This document shows positions 1,069 to 10,003 of a stretch of 64,000 bases of DNA, one piece after another. This DNA is from Nitrospirota bacterium. GTDB lineage: Bacteria > JACPQY01. The notes under the pieces are model-generated. The model ran no database searches and had not been told where the DNA came from. It saw nothing but the letters and a program-made list of their open reading frames with translations. A program made the position numbers and the translations under genes. Positions within the stretch are counted from its first letter, which is position 1; each line of letters begins with the position of its first letter. The DNA is taken from assembly GCA_016180645.1 (NCBI GenBank), contig JACPAV010000009.1:46354-110353 (forward strand), given 5' to 3'.

Positions 1069-1389
1069 TCAGTCCAGTCCCAGGGCGAAGCGGAGGGCGG
1101 TGTTGACCGCTTCCATCTTCTCCGAGCCGAGCGTTGTTATCCGGTTCATGAGCCACGCCTTTGGAACGGTGTGCAGAACGTCGACGTTTACCACACATTC
1201 CTTCGAGAGGCCGTCCTCCGGCCCCAGCCGAACCTCAACCGGGAGTTGCCGGATCGCTCCCGTGACCACGGCGACAACGATCGAACGACGAGTCTGAATG
1301 GCTCTTTCTCTTGAAACGAGGACGACCGGACGCCTCCCCGATGGGGGAGGCAGGTTCGCCCACCAGATTTCACCCCGCTGCATCACCAC
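1069..1389 (-). CDS. MazF/PemK-type endoribonuclease toxin
   Basis: 106 residues, the usual length of MazF toxins. It opens with the family signature R-G-E-I-W-W-A-N-L-P followed by G-R-R-P-V-V-L-V-S, and has the central beta segment and the N-V-D near the middle that MazF proteins share. MazF enzymes cleave single-stranded mRNA at short motifs. The gene lies just downstream of a ribbon-helix-helix antitoxin gene and overlaps its end by 7 bp, so the two form one operon. A second ATG at 1383 could be the true start. Its 3' end converges on the hydrolase gene with a 5-bp gap. Confidence 0.9.
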   Translation of the reverse strand: MVMQRGEIWWANLPPPSGRRPVVLVSRERAIQTRRSIVVAVVTGAIRQLPVEVRLGPEDGLSKECVVNVDVLHTVPKAWLMNRITTLGSEKMEAVNTALRFALGLD

Positions 1390-1637
1390 TTCTCTCGCGG
1401 CAGGGATTTGGTGGCCGCTTTCGCGAGGCTCTCGATTTCCTTGAGGTCCTCCGGGACCTTCCGGTAACCTTCCACATACCTCCTCTCCAACTCCGCGATC
1501 TCCCGGCTCCTATGCCACGACCGTAGGGCCTCACGAATGATCTCGCTGCGGGGCTTCTTCAATCGTTTCCGCGTCCTCTCCAAGGCTTCAAAATCCTCCG
1601 CGGGCAAACTGATAGCCGTGCGGACCGCTCTCGCCAT
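1383..1637 (-). CDS. ribbon-helix-helix (CopG-like) antitoxin
   Basis: 84 residues. The N-terminus V-R-T-A-I-S-L-P forms the single beta strand of a ribbon-helix-helix DNA-binding domain, followed by D-F-E-A-L-E and K-K-P-R-S-E-I-I-R-E-A-L. The charged C-terminal half (about residues 45-84) is the likely toxin-binding tail. It is first in the toxin-antitoxin operon and would repress its own promoter; three spaced direct repeats lie 26-55 bp upstream. The pairing with a MazF toxin, rather than a MazE AbrB-type antitoxin, resembles MazEF variants with RHH antitoxins. Confidence 0.85.
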   Translation of the reverse strand: MARAVRTAISLPAEDFEALERTRKRLKKPRSEIIREALRSWHRSREIAELERRYVEGYRKVPEDLKEIESLAKAATKSLPREKW

Positions 1638-4818: not shown

Positions 4819-4905
4819 GGTCAACTCCATACACCTGACAGAACCGAAAGCTGGGATAGTCCTACGGAATGGGAACACCTTGTGTACAGAGTATAGAGTT
4901 GACCC
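4819..4905. repeat. 87-bp inverted-repeat element, copy 1
   Basis: Begins GGTCAACTC and ends GAGTTGACCC. A second copy of the same length and orientation lies at 7476-7562 with only scattered mismatches. The ends form inverted repeats (GGTCAACTCTA and its complement), and the interior has a small hairpin around TCCTACGGAA. Copy 1 sits between the PI-PLC-like gene and the BrnT-like toxin. Short, non-coding and palindromic, it resembles a MITE or REP-type element. Confidence 0.75.
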
Positions 4906-4961
4906 TAGTTGCTAGTTGCCCAACTACTTGATTGGTCACACCTGGTTTGCCCGCCGTGATG

Positions 4962-4990
4962 TTGACATAAAGCACACATTGTCATAGTAT
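4962..4990 (+). promoter_or_regulatory. sigma70-type promoter of the brnT/brnA-like pair
   Basis: -35 TTGACA (4962-4967, perfect), 17-bp spacer, -10 TAGTAT (4985-4990). TGACA at 4963-4967 and TGTCA at 4980-4984 form an inverted repeat that overlaps the promoter and could be an operator. The predicted transcript start is at or next to the ATG at 4996, so the mRNA would be leaderless. Confidence 0.55.
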
Positions 4991-4995
4991 TGGGC

Positions 4996-5289
4996 ATGGC
5001 TGGAGGATATGAGTTTGAGTTCGATCCGAACAAGAACAAGGCCCTCATGCGGGGAAGGGGAATCAGTTTTGAAGAGATCATCCTGCTCATCGATGAAGGA
5101 CATCTGCTCGATGTCGTCGAGCATCCGAACAAGGCCCGTTACCCAGACCAGCAGATGTACGTCGTTGACGTGGGCGGATATGTCTACCTCGTCCCCTTTG
5201 TGAGGGAAGGCAACAGAGTCACTCTCAAGACCGTCTATCCGAGCCGAAAGGCGACGAAAGAATACCGGGCAAAGGAGGAACAGCCGTGA
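4996..5289 (+). CDS. BrnT-like toxin
   Basis: 97 residues. The start Y-E-F-E-F-D-P-N-K-N followed by G-I-S-F-E-E is the BrnT signature, and the C-terminal L-V-P-F-V-R...L-K-T-V-Y-P-S-R is the usual last strand. BrnT proteins are RelE-fold ribonucleases neutralised by BrnA. The downstream gene overlaps by 4 bp (GTGA) and encodes a matching antitoxin. An upstream TTG at 4990 is possible, but it lies inside the predicted -10. Confidence 0.85.
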   Translation: MAGGYEFEFDPNKNKALMRGRGISFEEIILLIDEGHLLDVVEHPNKARYPDQQMYVVDVGGYVYLVPFVREGNRVTLKTVYPSRKATKEYRAKEEQP

Positions 5290-5561
5290 AGAGAATGAAC
5301 CAGGACGAAGAAATCGAGGCTCTCAAGGCCCTAGACCGGGGGAAACTGGCGCGTTCCAAGGACGCCGCAAGAGAGATTCAAGTCGCCCGGGAAGCGGCGG
5401 GGGCCTACCTCAGGAAGGATGAGCGGATCAATATCCGCCTATCGGGGCCGGACCTGAAGCTTCTGAAGCGAAGAGCTGCGGAGGAGGGGATTCCCTACCA
5501 GACGCTCGTTGCGAGTGTGCTGCACAAGTTTGTTTCCGGCCGACTCCAGACCAGAGGTTGA
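5286..5561 (+). CDS. BrnA/CopG-like antitoxin
   Basis: 91 residues with a charged helical N-terminus (about 1-45, likely toxin-binding). The C-terminal domain has D-E-R-I-N-I-R-L-S-G-P-D-L-K-L-L-K-R-R-A and Y-Q-T-L-V-A-S-V-L-H-K-F, typical of the BrnA/COG5304 ribbon-helix-helix group. GTG start overlaps the toxin stop, giving toxin-first gene order, as in brnTA. It is expected to repress the promoter at 4962-4990. Confidence 0.85.
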   Translation: MKRMNQDEEIEALKALDRGKLARSKDAAREIQVAREAAGAYLRKDERINIRLSGPDLKLLKRRAAEEGIPYQTLVASVLHKFVSGRLQTRG

Positions 5562-5765: not shown

Positions 5766-7280
5766 CTACCCCTCAACATTCGCCCTCGACTGCAATCGGG
5801 CAGTTTTCCTCCAACTGGGCATGACTTCGTCAAGTCGACCTGCTTTCCGGACAATATTGTAGGTCGTGCCATTCCCAACCTGCCAATGCTTTCGAGATGC
5901 GAAACGCTTACCCTCGTGCATTGCCGATTCAATCGTCCACCGATTTCGGGTCCGTGGGACTACTTCATCCAGTCGACCTGCCTCCCGAACCAAGTTGTAG
6001 CTTGTGAACTGCGCCACTTTCCACTCCTGGCGGTTTTTGTATTTCTCCCCCTCTCCAAGCGCACGCTCAAGCGTCCATTTTCGCGTGTCCCTTGGACGGA
6101 GAACCGTTCGAAGAAGGCCCGCTCGGCGGACGAGATCATATGAACCAGGATGACTGCGTGCCCATTCAGTAAGGCTCTGCTGAATTCTTCCGATGGAGAT
6201 CGCTTTCTCAAGACTCAGGGGCCTCCGCTTTGGCAGGACCTCGTCCAATAACCCTGCCTGTCTAACAATCTGAAATGCCCGGCTGGATTTCCTCTGAGCA
6301 CGATCGCGGTTCGGATATGTCTTTAGCTGATCCACGGCTGCCTGCAGCGACCACTTGCGGTATCGCGGTTCCATGTGGCTGCAACACCTCGCGAGCATGC
6401 CCCGGCGGCGTGCAGCCTGATAGGACGCCGCATGATCCATCTGCCATGCATATTTCGACTCGTATTTCCGTGCGATCAATCGGAGTTCTCGGTCTGTGTA
6501 GGGTCTAGCTGAGCCCAGCGAACCGGCGCGCGTTCGATTCAGAATCGTCCATCCTGCCTGCGCATACCAGCGGATTGCTCGTTCCTCTGCGACTTGGGAT
6601 TGCTTTGGCGTGAGTCCACGTGCTCGAATCCGGATGGTCGGCAACACGCCTCCAAGCGAGTCGATTCGATCACGTACGGTTCGATGCCGCCTATTGGCCC
6701 TGAAATGATCTGCAATCCGAAACCGGGGGTTCAACGAAATTCCGACGTAGGCGCTTCCGTCAATGAATTCGAGCGCATACACAGACCGGGGTTTTGCCGT
6801 GTTTGGTATCCAATGTGGCCGTCGCATATGCCTGCAAACATCATCCAGAATTCCTCGATAGTGTGCCGCATCATAGAGGCTGGGAGCCCTCTCCCGGAAT
6901 TCTTTTCTCGATCGGTACTTGAGCGCCCCCTCGTGGATCTCTCTCTTGGAGTAGCGGGAATGGAGCCCACGACGCATGTGCTGAGTGGCATCTTGATGGA
7001 TGCCAAGTCGGAAGCTACTCTGATACGCAACGTTTGAACCCTTTCGCCAACCCTCCAACGTCTTGTACCTACCGGCATCTCCCAGAACTTTCTCACGCGT
7101 CCAAATAAGCGGGCCCATCTTTGGTTTCGGCATATGGGAAGTTGCGCGCTCATGTATCCCGCTCTGGATGGCGATTCGGTACGCATAGGCGGAGTTCTCT
7201 TTCCATTCACTCCTCGAATGAAACCGCCTGGCGTCTGTGAGAATTCGGCTGGCCGTCCAGTATCTCCTTCGCTTTCGCAT
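5766..7280 (-). CDS. GIY-YIG nuclease flanked by eight W-T/A-Y/L-D-E repeats
   Basis: 504 residues. A GIY-YIG nuclease domain (about 166-250) has V-Y-A-L-E-F, A-Y-V-G, a catalytic Arg in N-P-R-F-R, a Glu in E-E-R-A-I-R-W-Y and an Asn in I-L-N-R-T. Three repeats of 45-50 residues precede it and five follow. Each reads roughly W-T-x(5)-A-x(3)-Y-x(2)-R-x(2)-W-x(6)-Y-x(5)-G-x-L-D-E-V. Such repeats occur beside nuclease domains in free-standing, homing-type endonucleases, where they are thought to bind DNA in tandem. It lies between two copies of an 87-bp element inside an accessory island. Target and role are unknown. Confidence 0.8.
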   Translation of the reverse strand: MRKRRRYWTASRILTDARRFHSRSEWKENSAYAYRIAIQSGIHERATSHMPKPKMGPLIWTREKVLGDAGRYKTLEGWRKGSNVAYQSSFRLGIHQDATQHMRRGLHSRYSKREIHEGALKYRSRKEFRERAPSLYDAAHYRGILDDVCRHMRRPHWIPNTAKPRSVYALEFIDGSAYVGISLNPRFRIADHFRANRRHRTVRDRIDSLGGVLPTIRIRARGLTPKQSQVAEERAIRWYAQAGWTILNRTRAGSLGSARPYTDRELRLIARKYESKYAWQMDHAASYQAARRRGMLARCCSHMEPRYRKWSLQAAVDQLKTYPNRDRAQRKSSRAFQIVRQAGLLDEVLPKRRPLSLEKAISIGRIQQSLTEWARSHPGSYDLVRRAGLLRTVLRPRDTRKWTLERALGEGEKYKNRQEWKVAQFTSYNLVREAGRLDEVVPRTRNRWTIESAMHEGKRFASRKHWQVGNGTTYNIVRKAGRLDEVMPSWRKTARLQSRANVEG

Positions 7281-7374: not shown

Positions 7375-7475
7375 CTACGGCTTCAGAATGATCTTGCCGT
7401 GGGTTTTCCGGCCGGCGAGGTCGCGGAGGGCTTCGCGGGCGCGGTCGAGAGGGCGCACGGGCGAGAGGGCGCACG
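7375..7475 (-). pseudogene. C-terminal remnant of a quinone oxidoreductase (MDR) gene
   Basis: Read on the minus strand, the last 28 codons before the TAG at 7377-7375 give R-P-L-D-R-A-R-E-A-L-R-D-L-A-G-R, then K-T-H-G-K-I-I-L-K-P-stop. This matches the end of the intact oxidoreductase at 9032-10003 ([20 protein letters not shown]). The fragment stops exactly at the 87-bp element (7476), so everything upstream of it has been lost. Confidence 0.8.
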
Positions 7476-8093
7476 GGTCAACTCTATACACGTGACAGAA
7501 CCGACAGCTGGGATAGTCCTACGGAATAGGAGTACCTTGTGTACAGAGTCTAGAGTTGACCCTAATTGCACGAGTTTCAGAACGTACAGACCGAAGTCGA
7601 ACTTGAAATGGCGAATCTCTGGGATTCTCAGTGCCCTTGGATCGAATGCACGGACGACCTCGCCCCATCTCTTGTCCGTGTCGGCAAGGGCGATCTTGAA
7701 TATGGGCCCAGTGCGCCGCACATCGTACAGAACAAGGTCCTGGCCATTGCAAAGACCATACGTGTTGCAGCGGACCTCAGGGTGAATCGCGTAGCTGAAC
7801 GCCTGCTCGACGTGATGAGACTTTACGATGGACTCACCGGGCCGCTTGGCGTCCAGAACGAGCAAGGGCTCGTCGTCGACGAGCAAGGTGTAGTCCGGAA
7901 CGATATTAACGGGATACCGCTTAGAACCGATCATCACAAACGGGTGGACCAGGGCTTTGCTGCGCACGACCTTGAAACGCCCGGTCGGTGAGTAGCCAAG
8001 CCGCTTAAGCAATGGAGCGACCAGCTCTTCCCGGACCGCGTCTTCCTTGAAAGCAGGCTCGTCAAGAGCGCTGAAATCGAAGTCTCCGAACAT
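7383..8093 (-). CDS. HSDR_N-type (type I restriction R subunit N-terminal) protein, chimeric 3' end
   Basis: 236 codons, of which about the first 177 are native. They show the HSDR_N/COG4748 PD-(D/E)XK nuclease core: V-P-D-Y-T-L-L-V-D-D-E, then L-V-L-D-A-K-R-P-G, and later Q-A-F-S-Y-A-I-H-P-E. From about residue 178 the frame runs through the 87-bp element and then out of frame through the oxidoreductase remnant, so the C-terminus is not original. There is no helicase domain; stand-alone HSDR_N proteins of this length exist. The ATG lies 10 bp from the attC core, which makes it the second cassette of a decayed integron. Function after truncation is doubtful. Confidence 0.75.
   Translation of the reverse strand: MFGDFDFSALDEPAFKEDAVREELVAPLLKRLGYSPTGRFKVVRSKALVHPFVMIGSKRYPVNIVPDYTLLVDDEPLLVLDAKRPGESIVKSHHVEQAFSYAIHPEVRCNTYGLCNGQDLVLYDVRRTGPIFKIALADTDKRWGEVVRAFDPRALRIPEIRHFKFDFGLYVLKLVQLGSTLDSVHKVLLFRRTIPAVGSVTCIELTRAPSRPCALSTAPAKPSATSPAGKPTARSF
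7476..7562. repeat. 87-bp inverted-repeat element, copy 2
   Basis: Same length and orientation as the copy at 4819-4905. It forms the junction between the oxidoreductase remnant (7375-7475) and the restriction-subunit-like gene (to 8093), and it supplies the altered C-terminus of the latter. In this copy the interior hairpin is TCCTA-CGGAA-TAGGA. Confidence 0.78.
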
Positions 8094-8102
8094 GCGGTTA
8101 CC

Positions 8103-8194
8103 GGCTAACGATCCGGTAAGCTGCGGCGCGCTTGCGCAACCTCGATTCCGCCACCGACCTCCCGCGCGCCGTCAGCTTCAGCCGGATGTTAAGC
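8103..8194 (-). other. attC (59-base-element-like) recombination site
   Basis: On the minus strand it starts GCTTAAC (RYYYAAC, perfect) and ends GTTAGCC (GTTRRRY with one mismatch). Between them ATCCGG, AGCTG and CGGCGCGC pair with GCGCGCCG, CAGCT and CCGGAT. One unpaired base (8172), an unpaired spacer (CTGA against TA) and a 32-base loop match the extrahelical base, central spacer and variable loop that integron integrases recognise. It lies 27 bp after the GIY-YIG stop. Confidence 0.78.
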
Positions 8195-8221
8195 CCGCTG
8201 CTGACTTGGCATCCATGAACT

Positions 8222-8647
8222 TCAGCGTTCCCTTCCCCAGGACCCCTGTGAGTTCGCTACAGGCTGGGCCCGGAATCTGGCGGCAAAGACTCTGATTATC
8301 AAACTTTCGAGCGACCGTGGTGACCGGCGTCGTGAGCACGGCACAATGGCAAATCGAGCACCGAAGGCGGCCGCGTATTCGTAGCGGGGCCAATATCGGG
8401 ACAAGGGTCGCGACCCCCGGGCCTCTCGCATGTACTTGAGATGTTGGACGAGTCGCTTGCGGAGACCGGAAGCTTGGCCAATGTAGAAAACCGCTGAACG
8501 TCCCCTTGGATACTGGAACTTGGTACTACCTGCTGTCACCAGAACGTACACGCCAGCCTGGTTCGGGACAGTCTGGATCGCGCGCTTCCGGAGCGGAAGG
8601 AGGCCACTCGCTCGGTATCTTGTGGGGATGAACTTTAGGTCGCTCAT
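8222..8647 (-). CDS. GIY-YIG-type protein in an integron cassette
   Basis: 141 residues. The core is A-G-V-Y-V-L-V (GIY-like) followed by F-Y-I-G-Q-A-S-G-L-R-K-R-L-V-Q-H-L (YIG-like with the catalytic Arg region). A Glu in S-L-E-S-L-I and an Asn near V-A-N-S-Q-G complete the expected set. It differs from the large repeat nuclease and from the UPF0213-type protein elsewhere in the window. The ATG is 14 bp from the attI-like core and the stop is 27 bp before attC, so the gene fills one cassette of about 560 bp. Whether it cuts DNA, for example in defence, is unknown. Confidence 0.75.
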   Translation of the reverse strand: MSDLKFIPTRYRASGLLPLRKRAIQTVPNQAGVYVLVTAGSTKFQYPRGRSAVFYIGQASGLRKRLVQHLKYMREARGSRPLSRYWPRYEYAAAFGARFAIVPCSRRRSPRSLESLIIRVFAARFRAQPVANSQGSWGRER

Positions 8648-8660
8648 GTTTTCAGAATGG

Positions 8661-8667
8661 GCCTAAC
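8661..8667 (-). other. attI-like core site GTTAGGC
   Basis: GTTAGGC on the minus strand fits the GTTRRRY core exactly. It lies 14 bp before the first cassette gene and 115 bp from the integrase start codon, which is where attI sits in integrons. The remaining attI features cannot be checked by eye. Confidence 0.55.
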
Positions 8668-8781
8668 CATTGATTAACTTGCTATTGTGCCCTGATAATG
8701 TGATTTCTTCCAAGCAGTTTTGCCATATGCCCATTATGAATCAGGCCCGCGTTCCCAGAGCACCCGCACGAAGGTGACTAT

Positions 8782-8868
8782 ATGCCCGACTCAACCAGAA
8801 CTCAAAAGCCCAAACTCCTCGATGAAGCACGACGGGTGCTCCGTCTGCACCACTATTCCATTCACACC
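8782..8868 (+). pseudogene. intI: N-terminal fragment of an integron-type tyrosine integrase
   Basis: ATG with an AAGGTGA ribosome site. The fragment reads M-P-D-S-T-R-T-Q then K-P-K-L-L-D-E-A-R-R-V-L-R-L-H-H-Y-S-I-H-T. This is the N-terminus of IntI-type integrases (V-x-x-L-D-x-x-R-x-x-I-R-x-x-H-Y-S-x-x-T). After Thr29 the frame enters a G/C-rich inverted repeat and stops nearby. The Arg, His and Tyr catalytic residues are all missing, so this is a dead gene. Confidence 0.72.
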
Positions 8869-8942
8869 GTCGCCCCCGCTTCGCTCCGGGGACGATGAGT
8901 AGAAGAATCACGGGATCTTTGCATCGAGCGATCCTACGTGGA

Positions 8943-9031: not shown

Positions 9032-10003
9032 TCAGGGCTGGAGGATGATCTTGCCGTGGGTCCTGCGGTCGGCGAGTTCGGCGAGGGCTTGGCGGGCGTC
9101 GGAGAGCGGATAGGTCTTGTAGATCACGGGGCGGATCTGGCCCGCGGCATACATTCGATAGAGTTCGTCCTGCGTTCGATCGACGAGGGCGTTGTCATGA
9201 CGGCGATACTCACCCCAATGGATGCCCATAACGGCAATGTTTTTGAGGAGGATGCGATTGGCGGCGACTTGGGGAATTCGGCCCGACGTAAAGCCGACGA
9301 TCACCGCGCGTCCTTCCCAGGCGATGCACTTGAGACTGAGATCGAGGAAATCGCCGCCGACGGCGTCGCAGATGACATCCGCGCCATGATCGCCGGTGAT
9401 GTCCTTCACCTTTTGCACCCAGTCGCCATCCCGATAGGAAATGGCATGATGCGCGCCGTTCTCCAGGCAGACTGAAAATTTCTCCTCGCTGCCTACTGCC
9501 GCGATGACCTTGGCGCCCAACGCTCTCCCGATTTGGACAGCCGCGAGGCCCACTCCGCCCGCCGCGGCTGAAACGAGGAGCCATTCTCCCTTCATCAATT
9601 GCGCGCGATGGACCAGGCCGAAGTACGAGGTCTGGTAGACCGCCTGAAACGCCGCCGCATGCTCGAAGGACATCTCGTCCGGAAGTTTGTAGGTCGTCAG
9701 GTCCGGCGCGAGGGCCTGTTCCGCGTAGCCGCCGGTAAGGAGCAGCGACATGATTCGGTCACCGGGTTTGAACCTCGATCCCGGTCCGGCCTCCTCCACC
9801 ACGCCGGAGATCTCGTTTCCGGGCGTAAACGGCAGCGGCGGTTTCATCTGGTACTTTCCCTGGATCATCAGGATGTCGTAGAAATTGAGCGCCGAGGCTT
9901 CCACGCGCACGCGCGTCCACCCATAATCCGGCTTCGGCTCGGGAAGATCCACGAGCTTCATGTCCTCCGGCTCGCACCACTCGCTCACCTGCCATGCACG
10001 CAT
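9032..10003 (-). CDS. zinc-independent MDR family NADPH:quinone oxidoreductase
   Basis: 323 residues from the ATG at 10003, where similarity starts ([14 protein letters not shown]); upstream in-frame starts exist but add unconserved residues. Hallmarks are [10 protein letters not shown], the nucleotide-binding [14 protein letters not shown] (about 145-158) and the T-H-G-K-I-I-L end. The structural and catalytic zinc Cys sets are absent, as in quinone oxidoreductases of the MDR superfamily. A decayed copy of the same gene end lies at 7375-7475. Confidence 0.88.

What the first reader, a model, noticed from the sequence alone, without database searches (positions are those of the whole stretch)
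7563..8868. Decayed integron with a foldable attC, an attI-like core and two nuclease-type cassettes
Seen: an IntI-like N-terminus on the plus strand; leftwards a GTTRRRY core, a GIY-YIG gene, a 92-bp site with RYYYAAC and near-GTTRRRY ends whose arms pair with one extrahelical base and an unpaired spacer, then an HSDR_N gene. Both genes face away from the integrase, as in integrons. Known: attC sites are recognised by structure. Inferred: a chromosomal integron that carried nuclease cassettes, possibly for defence, then was broken.
Basis: partly seen in the sequence, partly recalled or inferred. Interest (0 to 1): 0.75.

Follow-up and report, generated by a model that had tools for sequence, protein, structure and literature searches.

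The report
Broken integron with attI and attC
This stretch is the remains of an integron (a bacterial gene-collecting platform) that still has its docking site and two captured nuclease-type genes but only a scrap of its recombinase; the same docking site turned up in 24 copies in distantly related bacteria and two virus contigs, none with an intact recombinase beside it.

Summary
The site at 8103-8194 is a genuine attC on the cassette strand: a covariance model built without it scores it 40.2 bits (E 8.5e-9), against 11 bits for the next unrelated hit in the window. The core at 8661-8667 heads a conserved leader (attI, rightward promoter) that runs into the first 29 codons of an intI gene, broken by a 57-nt insertion and then a stop. 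A GIY-YIG-like cassette and a truncated HSDR_N cassette face away from it.

The genome carries six copies of this attI, each with a different first cassette, and eight attC sites at six places. No intact IntI was found. Many cassettes are defence-type (AbiV, XamI R-M, Mrr, Abi_C). The only same-family genome has two intact IntI genes in the same layout but with another attI.

Unexpectedly, the same attI-promoter-intI start occurs in MAGs labelled Deltaproteobacteria, Tectomicrobia, Troglogloeales and Armatimonadetes, and attI with its promoter in two IMG/VR contigs. Of 24 copies, found by attI alone, none has an intact integrase, and the break points differ. The window itself is a decayed integron, a known kind; the orphan attI family is an unusual extension of it.

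The parts
8782..8868 (+). 5' end of a dead intI gene (29 codons), interrupted after codon 29
   Evidence: 76% identity to the intI start behind the same leader in L065; leader alignment E 5e-12; profile of intact IntI aligns at its N-terminal part, E 0.0045
8869..8925 (.). 57-nt insertion with an in-frame stop; its start belongs to a dispersed GC-rich repeat
   Evidence: in other copies CACACC is followed directly by GAGCGATCC; 8867-8900 has dozens of partial matches in the genome
8926..8946 (+). intI resumes (ERSYVE, then stop), after which similarity is lost
   Evidence: frame 2 of L080 against L064/L065
8661..8702 (-). attI: core GTTAGGC at 8661-8667 and conserved flank
   Evidence: five other copies in the genome, nine MAG contigs and two virus contigs; no similarity beyond the core on the cassette side
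8670..8699 (+). promoter-like site towards intI (Pint)
   Evidence: TTGATT-18-GATAAT; most copies have TTGMCA-17-GATAAT or the same TTGATT site here
8777..8805 (-). promoter-like site towards the cassettes (candidate Pc), over the old intI start codon
   Evidence: TTGAGT-17-TATAGT, 2 sites found in the region against 0.2 expected; kept only in some other copies
8222..8647 (-). cassette 1: GIY-YIG-like gene, 141 aa, start 13 nt from the attI core
   Evidence: weak GIY-YIG and UvrC/Cho-type matches
8103..8194 (-). attC of cassette 1
   Evidence: E 8.5e-9 with a model built without it; scan with shuffled control; fold
7383..8093 (-). cassette 2: HSDR_N gene, start 9 nt from the attC, 3' end running into a repeat
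   Evidence: Pfam HSDR_N E 6.7e-7; PADLOC IIG R-M N-terminal match E 9.5e-7
7476..7569 (.). repeat that cuts off cassette 2
   Evidence: 91% identical to 4819-4912

Best explanation
This is the head of a former chromosomal integron. Shown from sequence: an attI site, a promoter-bearing leader, the first 29 codons of the integrase gene and two outward-facing cassettes with one well-formed attC between them; the integrase gene is broken by a small insertion and loses similarity soon after. Inferred from integron biology: an IntI once captured these cassettes at the attI core; the integrase then died, which froze the array, and a repeat insertion and deletion removed the rest of the array. The first cassette may still be transcribed from a leftward promoter over the old intI start. 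The same thing happened several times in this genome (six attI copies, no integrase found) and separately in other phyla that received the same integron lineage; the known fitness cost of an active integrase is the likely driver.
For: attC by structure model trained without it, by scan with control, and with covariation across nine attCs. attI leader with intI start shared with other genomes. No shared sequence on the cassette side of the core. Five more attI copies and seven more attC sites in the genome. Nine other attI loci have a model-found attC nearby, six of them not used for training. Intact integrons of the same layout in the same family, one sharing a 60%-identical Mrr cassette with this genome. 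Fitness cost of active integrases (PMC3510236).
Against: Only one attC is next to this attI. The intI remnant is 29 residues. No intact relative of this very integrase was found. The assembly (97% complete, 65 contigs) could lack an integrase contig. The GIY-YIG match is weak. No recombination was tested.
Confidence: 0.93

Rival explanations
1. The array is not dead but served in trans: an integrase missing from the assembly, or on a plasmid or phage, still moves these cassettes.
For: The attC keeps nearly all its pairs and the attI core is intact; the genome is a 65-contig assembly of 97% completeness; the related genome G001 has two IntI.
Against: No IntI in the held genome; other attC sites of the genome are worn (C7:87131-87190 only 26 bits); window attI flank and hairpin are degraded; cassette 2 is cut off.
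Confidence: 0.1
2. The attI leader is itself a unit that spreads without integrase (as a delta-attI-type cassette end, or carried by phages), so the 24 copies were never full integrons at these places.
For: No intact integrase in 24 copies; two IMG/VR contigs have attI, a methyltransferase-type gene and an attC but no intI; delta-attI cassettes work in class 1 integrons (PMC12901181); C7 and G043 have several attI within a few kb.
Against: Copies end at many different points within intI, and L064, L066 and L069 keep intI 3' pieces around internal deletions, which points to full-length ancestors and separate decay.
Confidence: 0.15
3. Chance: a GC-rich hairpin and a short integrase-like reading frame that happen to lie together.
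For: Each piece alone is short; profile libraries give nothing for the 38-aa frame.
Against: Zero scan hits in 488 kb of shuffled sequence, E 8.5e-9 for the attC, E 5e-12 for the leader, and both in the right order and orientation.
Confidence: 0.01

Closest known systems
CALIN (cluster of attC sites lacking an integron integrase; IntegronFinder, PMC9024848)
   Same: attC-bearing cassettes without an integrase; [quoted passage not shown]
   Different: The window has a single attC, below the two-site default, and keeps attI, leader and an intI remnant, which the CALIN definition does not include.
Chromosomal integrons with intI pseudogenes (PMC2426708)
   Same: Dead integrase beside attI and cassettes; nearly one third of intI genes in that survey were pseudogenes, and one fifth of the lineages had more than one intI.
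   Different: Here all 24 copies of one attI family are broken, in distant phyla, with six copies in one genome.
Sedentary integrons of the sister genus (G001)
   Same: Same layout (intI facing away from the cassettes), similar attCs, one shared Mrr cassette.
   Different: Intact IntI with an N-terminal extension of about 100 aa, and a different attI flank.
Integrons in phages (PMC9892861)
   Same: The two IMG/VR contigs L041 and L042 carry this attI followed by a methyltransferase-type gene and an attC, like the methyltransferase cassettes reported in phages.
   Different: Different phages and attI; no integrase in these contigs.

Membership tests
Integron (ancestral state) | attC recognised by structure, with RYYYAAC/GTTRRRY ends and extrahelical base | tested here: met
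Integron (ancestral state) | attI beside intI, cassettes inserted at its core and facing away from intI | tested here: met
Integron (ancestral state) | intI gene of the integron integrase family | tested here: met
   as a remnant only: 29 residues
Functional integron | complete integrase with the IntI-specific domain | tested here: not met
   frame broken after codon 29; no IntI elsewhere in the genome
Functional integron | site-specific recombination of attI and attC | not testable with these tools
   needs an in vivo assay
CALIN | at least two attC sites together without integrase | tested here: not met
   one attC in the window; C4:6761-8598 and C7:87131-87914 of the same genome do have two
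Defence cassettes | cassette genes protect against phages | not testable with these tools
   family matches only

The most novel reading that the evidence does not exclude
A family of orphan attI platforms: one attI-promoter-intI-start leader spread through distantly related bacteria and some phages, kept in up to six copies per genome as a landing and expression site for cassettes while its own integrase has been lost every time, with any further capture depending on integrases of other integrons in trans.
Probability: 0.2. Interest if true: 0.7.

Novelty: new variant of a known kind. Interest (0 to 1): 0.5.

Why it matters
attI sites outside class 1 integrons are poorly described (PMC9024848). 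This gives a defined, searchable attI family, indicates that one integron lineage crossed several phyla and reached virus contigs, and is a strong case of repeated integrase loss: none intact among 24 copies found without regard to integrase state, against roughly two thirds intact in an earlier survey (PMC2426708). The frozen arrays hold many defence-type genes that can be tested.

Tried and rejected
Pfam and NCBIfam on the 38-aa intI frame: no hit; settled by leader homology instead. TIGR02249 hits in the genome are other tyrosine recombinases; the best, L001, is XerC/D-like. The window attC as a DNA repeat: no other full copy. A plain RYYYAAC...GTTRRRY pattern is mostly noise (fewer hits than its reversed control), but it contains the C30 attC. 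The 166-bp leader is absent from 72,556 plasmid and 50,697 phage records by blastn. A protein scan of IMG/VR for the integrase start confirmed nothing. Nearest plasmid relative of the 84-aa integrase fragment in the rows shown: 50% identity. A second attC alignment (A2) aligned the arms badly and was not used. The ADH gene beside the integron has only 34% relatives in G001, so no empty site could be compared. A search of the phylum of G043 held only four genomes and added nothing. IntegronFinder and HattCI were not available; own covariance models replaced them.

Full report
What is in the window. Reading from right to left, 8782-8868 (+) is the start of an integrase gene (MPDSTRTQKPKLLDEARRVLRLHHYSIHT), 8661-8702 is an attI site, 8222-8647 (-) a GIY-YIG-like gene, 8103-8194 an attC and 7383-8093 (-) an HSDR_N gene. 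The first gene starts 13 nt from the core and the second 9 nt from the attC, the tight packing expected of cassettes.

The attC is real. A scan for RYYYAAC/GTTRRRY ends with pairing arms found only 8103-8194 in the window and nothing in 488 kb of shuffled sequence at the same threshold. Nine attCs from this genome, its relative and other integron loci share a structure in which 13 of 16 pairs are kept through changes on both sides. A covariance model trained on 18 attCs without the window site gives it 40.2 bits, E 8.5e-9, on the minus strand, which is the cassette strand; the same site on the other strand gives 15 bits and the next unrelated hit 11 bits. The training rows had been aligned with a first model that did contain the window site, a small circularity. 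IntegronFinder and HattCI were not available.

The attI and the intI remnant are real. The block CTAACCATTGATTAACTTGCTATTGTGCCCTGATAAT occurs at five further places of the genome (C4, C7 twice, C15, C30). A scan of species genomes with a relaxed pattern of it found nine MAG contigs, labelled Desulfonatronaceae, Syntrophaceae, other Deltaproteobacteria, Tectomicrobia, Troglogloeales and Armatimonadetes, and a scan of IMG/VR two contigs. Behind the block, a leader with a rightward promoter-like site, a hairpin CGGGCAGTTTTGCCCG and an intI start are conserved; the two IMG/VR copies keep only the first 86 bp. The window aligns over 163 positions, E 5e-12, and its 29 residues are 76% identical to one of these intI starts. 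On the other side of the core no two copies share any sequence at the search threshold, which is the signature of an integron boundary.

How it broke. In the window the intI frame is interrupted after codon 29 by a 57-nt insertion with a stop codon. The start of that insertion (8867-8900) belongs to a repeat with dozens of partial copies in the genome. The frame then resumes for six residues (ERSYVE) and ends. The HSDR_N cassette runs into a 94-bp repeat also present at 4819-4912.

The rest of the genome. No IntI was found. The attC model finds eight sites at six places: C30, the window, two in C4:6.7-8.6 kb, two in C7, and one each in C8 and C6. Genes next to the attI and attC sites include a uracil-DNA glycosylase-like gene (C30) and HEPN_AbiV (C4:192 kb); an AbiU2-like protein (weak), XamI endonuclease plus methyltransferase, a 4-fold beta flower protein and an Abi_C/AbiJ-like protein (C7); and a protein kinase (C15), Mrr and a DNA methyltransferase (C4:6.7-9.6 kb). 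The Mrr protein is 60% identical to the first cassette behind an intact IntI in G001, the only same-family genome, which has two intact IntI in the same layout with a different attI flank.

The attI family. Twenty-four copies were seen: six in this genome, thirteen in the nine MAGs, three (one of them weak) in G043 and one in each of two IMG/VR contigs. None has an intact integrase beside it. Similarity ends at many different points, and L064, L066 and L069 keep intI 3' pieces around internal deletions. The copies were found by attI and not by integrase state, so this stands out against the one third of intI reported as pseudogenes in an earlier survey (PMC2426708). The cost of an active integrase (PMC3510236) is a ready explanation. 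Caveats: copies within a genome and related copies are not independent, all named sources are MAGs or virus contigs with possible binning errors, and intact members may have a more diverged attI. Among 386 genomes searched as relatives, most of them only of the same domain, three including this one had the leader at E 1e-7. Nine other attI loci have a model-found attC nearby, six of them outside the training set.

Mechanism. Shown: anatomy, homology, breakage. Inferred from established integron biology: capture of cassettes at the core by a former IntI, freezing after its loss, and possibly continued expression of the first cassette from a leftward promoter over the old start codon (TTGAGT-17-TATAGT). 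That promoter is kept at the same place in only some copies, so this step is weak.

Judgement. The finding is confirmed and the interpretation supported. The window alone is an ordinary kind of relic; the cross-phylum attI family with no living integrase is the part that would interest a specialist.

Noticed in passing
window 4819-4912 and 7476-7569: Two 91%-identical 94-bp copies with inverted ends (GGTCAACTC...GAGTTGACC), which look like a small inverted-repeat element; one cuts off the HSDR_N cassette.
   Followed up: partly
window 7379-7452 and 9036-9109: The 3' end of the zinc-dehydrogenase-type gene occurs twice (78% identity over 74 nt), on either side of the integron remnant: a relic of a second such gene, or a duplication.
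   Followed up: no
window 8867-8900: GC-rich dispersed repeat (GTCGCCCCCGCTTCGCTCCGGGGACGA) with dozens of partial copies in the genome, part of the insertion that breaks intI.
   Followed up: partly
window 5766-7280 (-): 504-aa GIY-YIG protein with repeated C-terminal units on the cassette strand just beyond the array; no attC was found beside it.
   Followed up: no
window 1069-1637 (-) and 4990-5561 (+): MazF/PemK-type toxin with a ribbon-helix-helix partner, and a BrnT-like toxin with a CopG-type antitoxin, near the integron remnant.
   Followed up: no
L090 (G043:C13), attI near 283 and 5555 plus a weaker copy: Three attI copies within 10 kb in one genome, with a TIR plus Mrr fusion protein beside a model-found attC.
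   Followed up: partly
L041 and L042 (IMG/VR contigs): attI directly before methyltransferase-type genes followed by an attC in two predicted virus contigs: a possible vehicle between phyla.
   Followed up: partly
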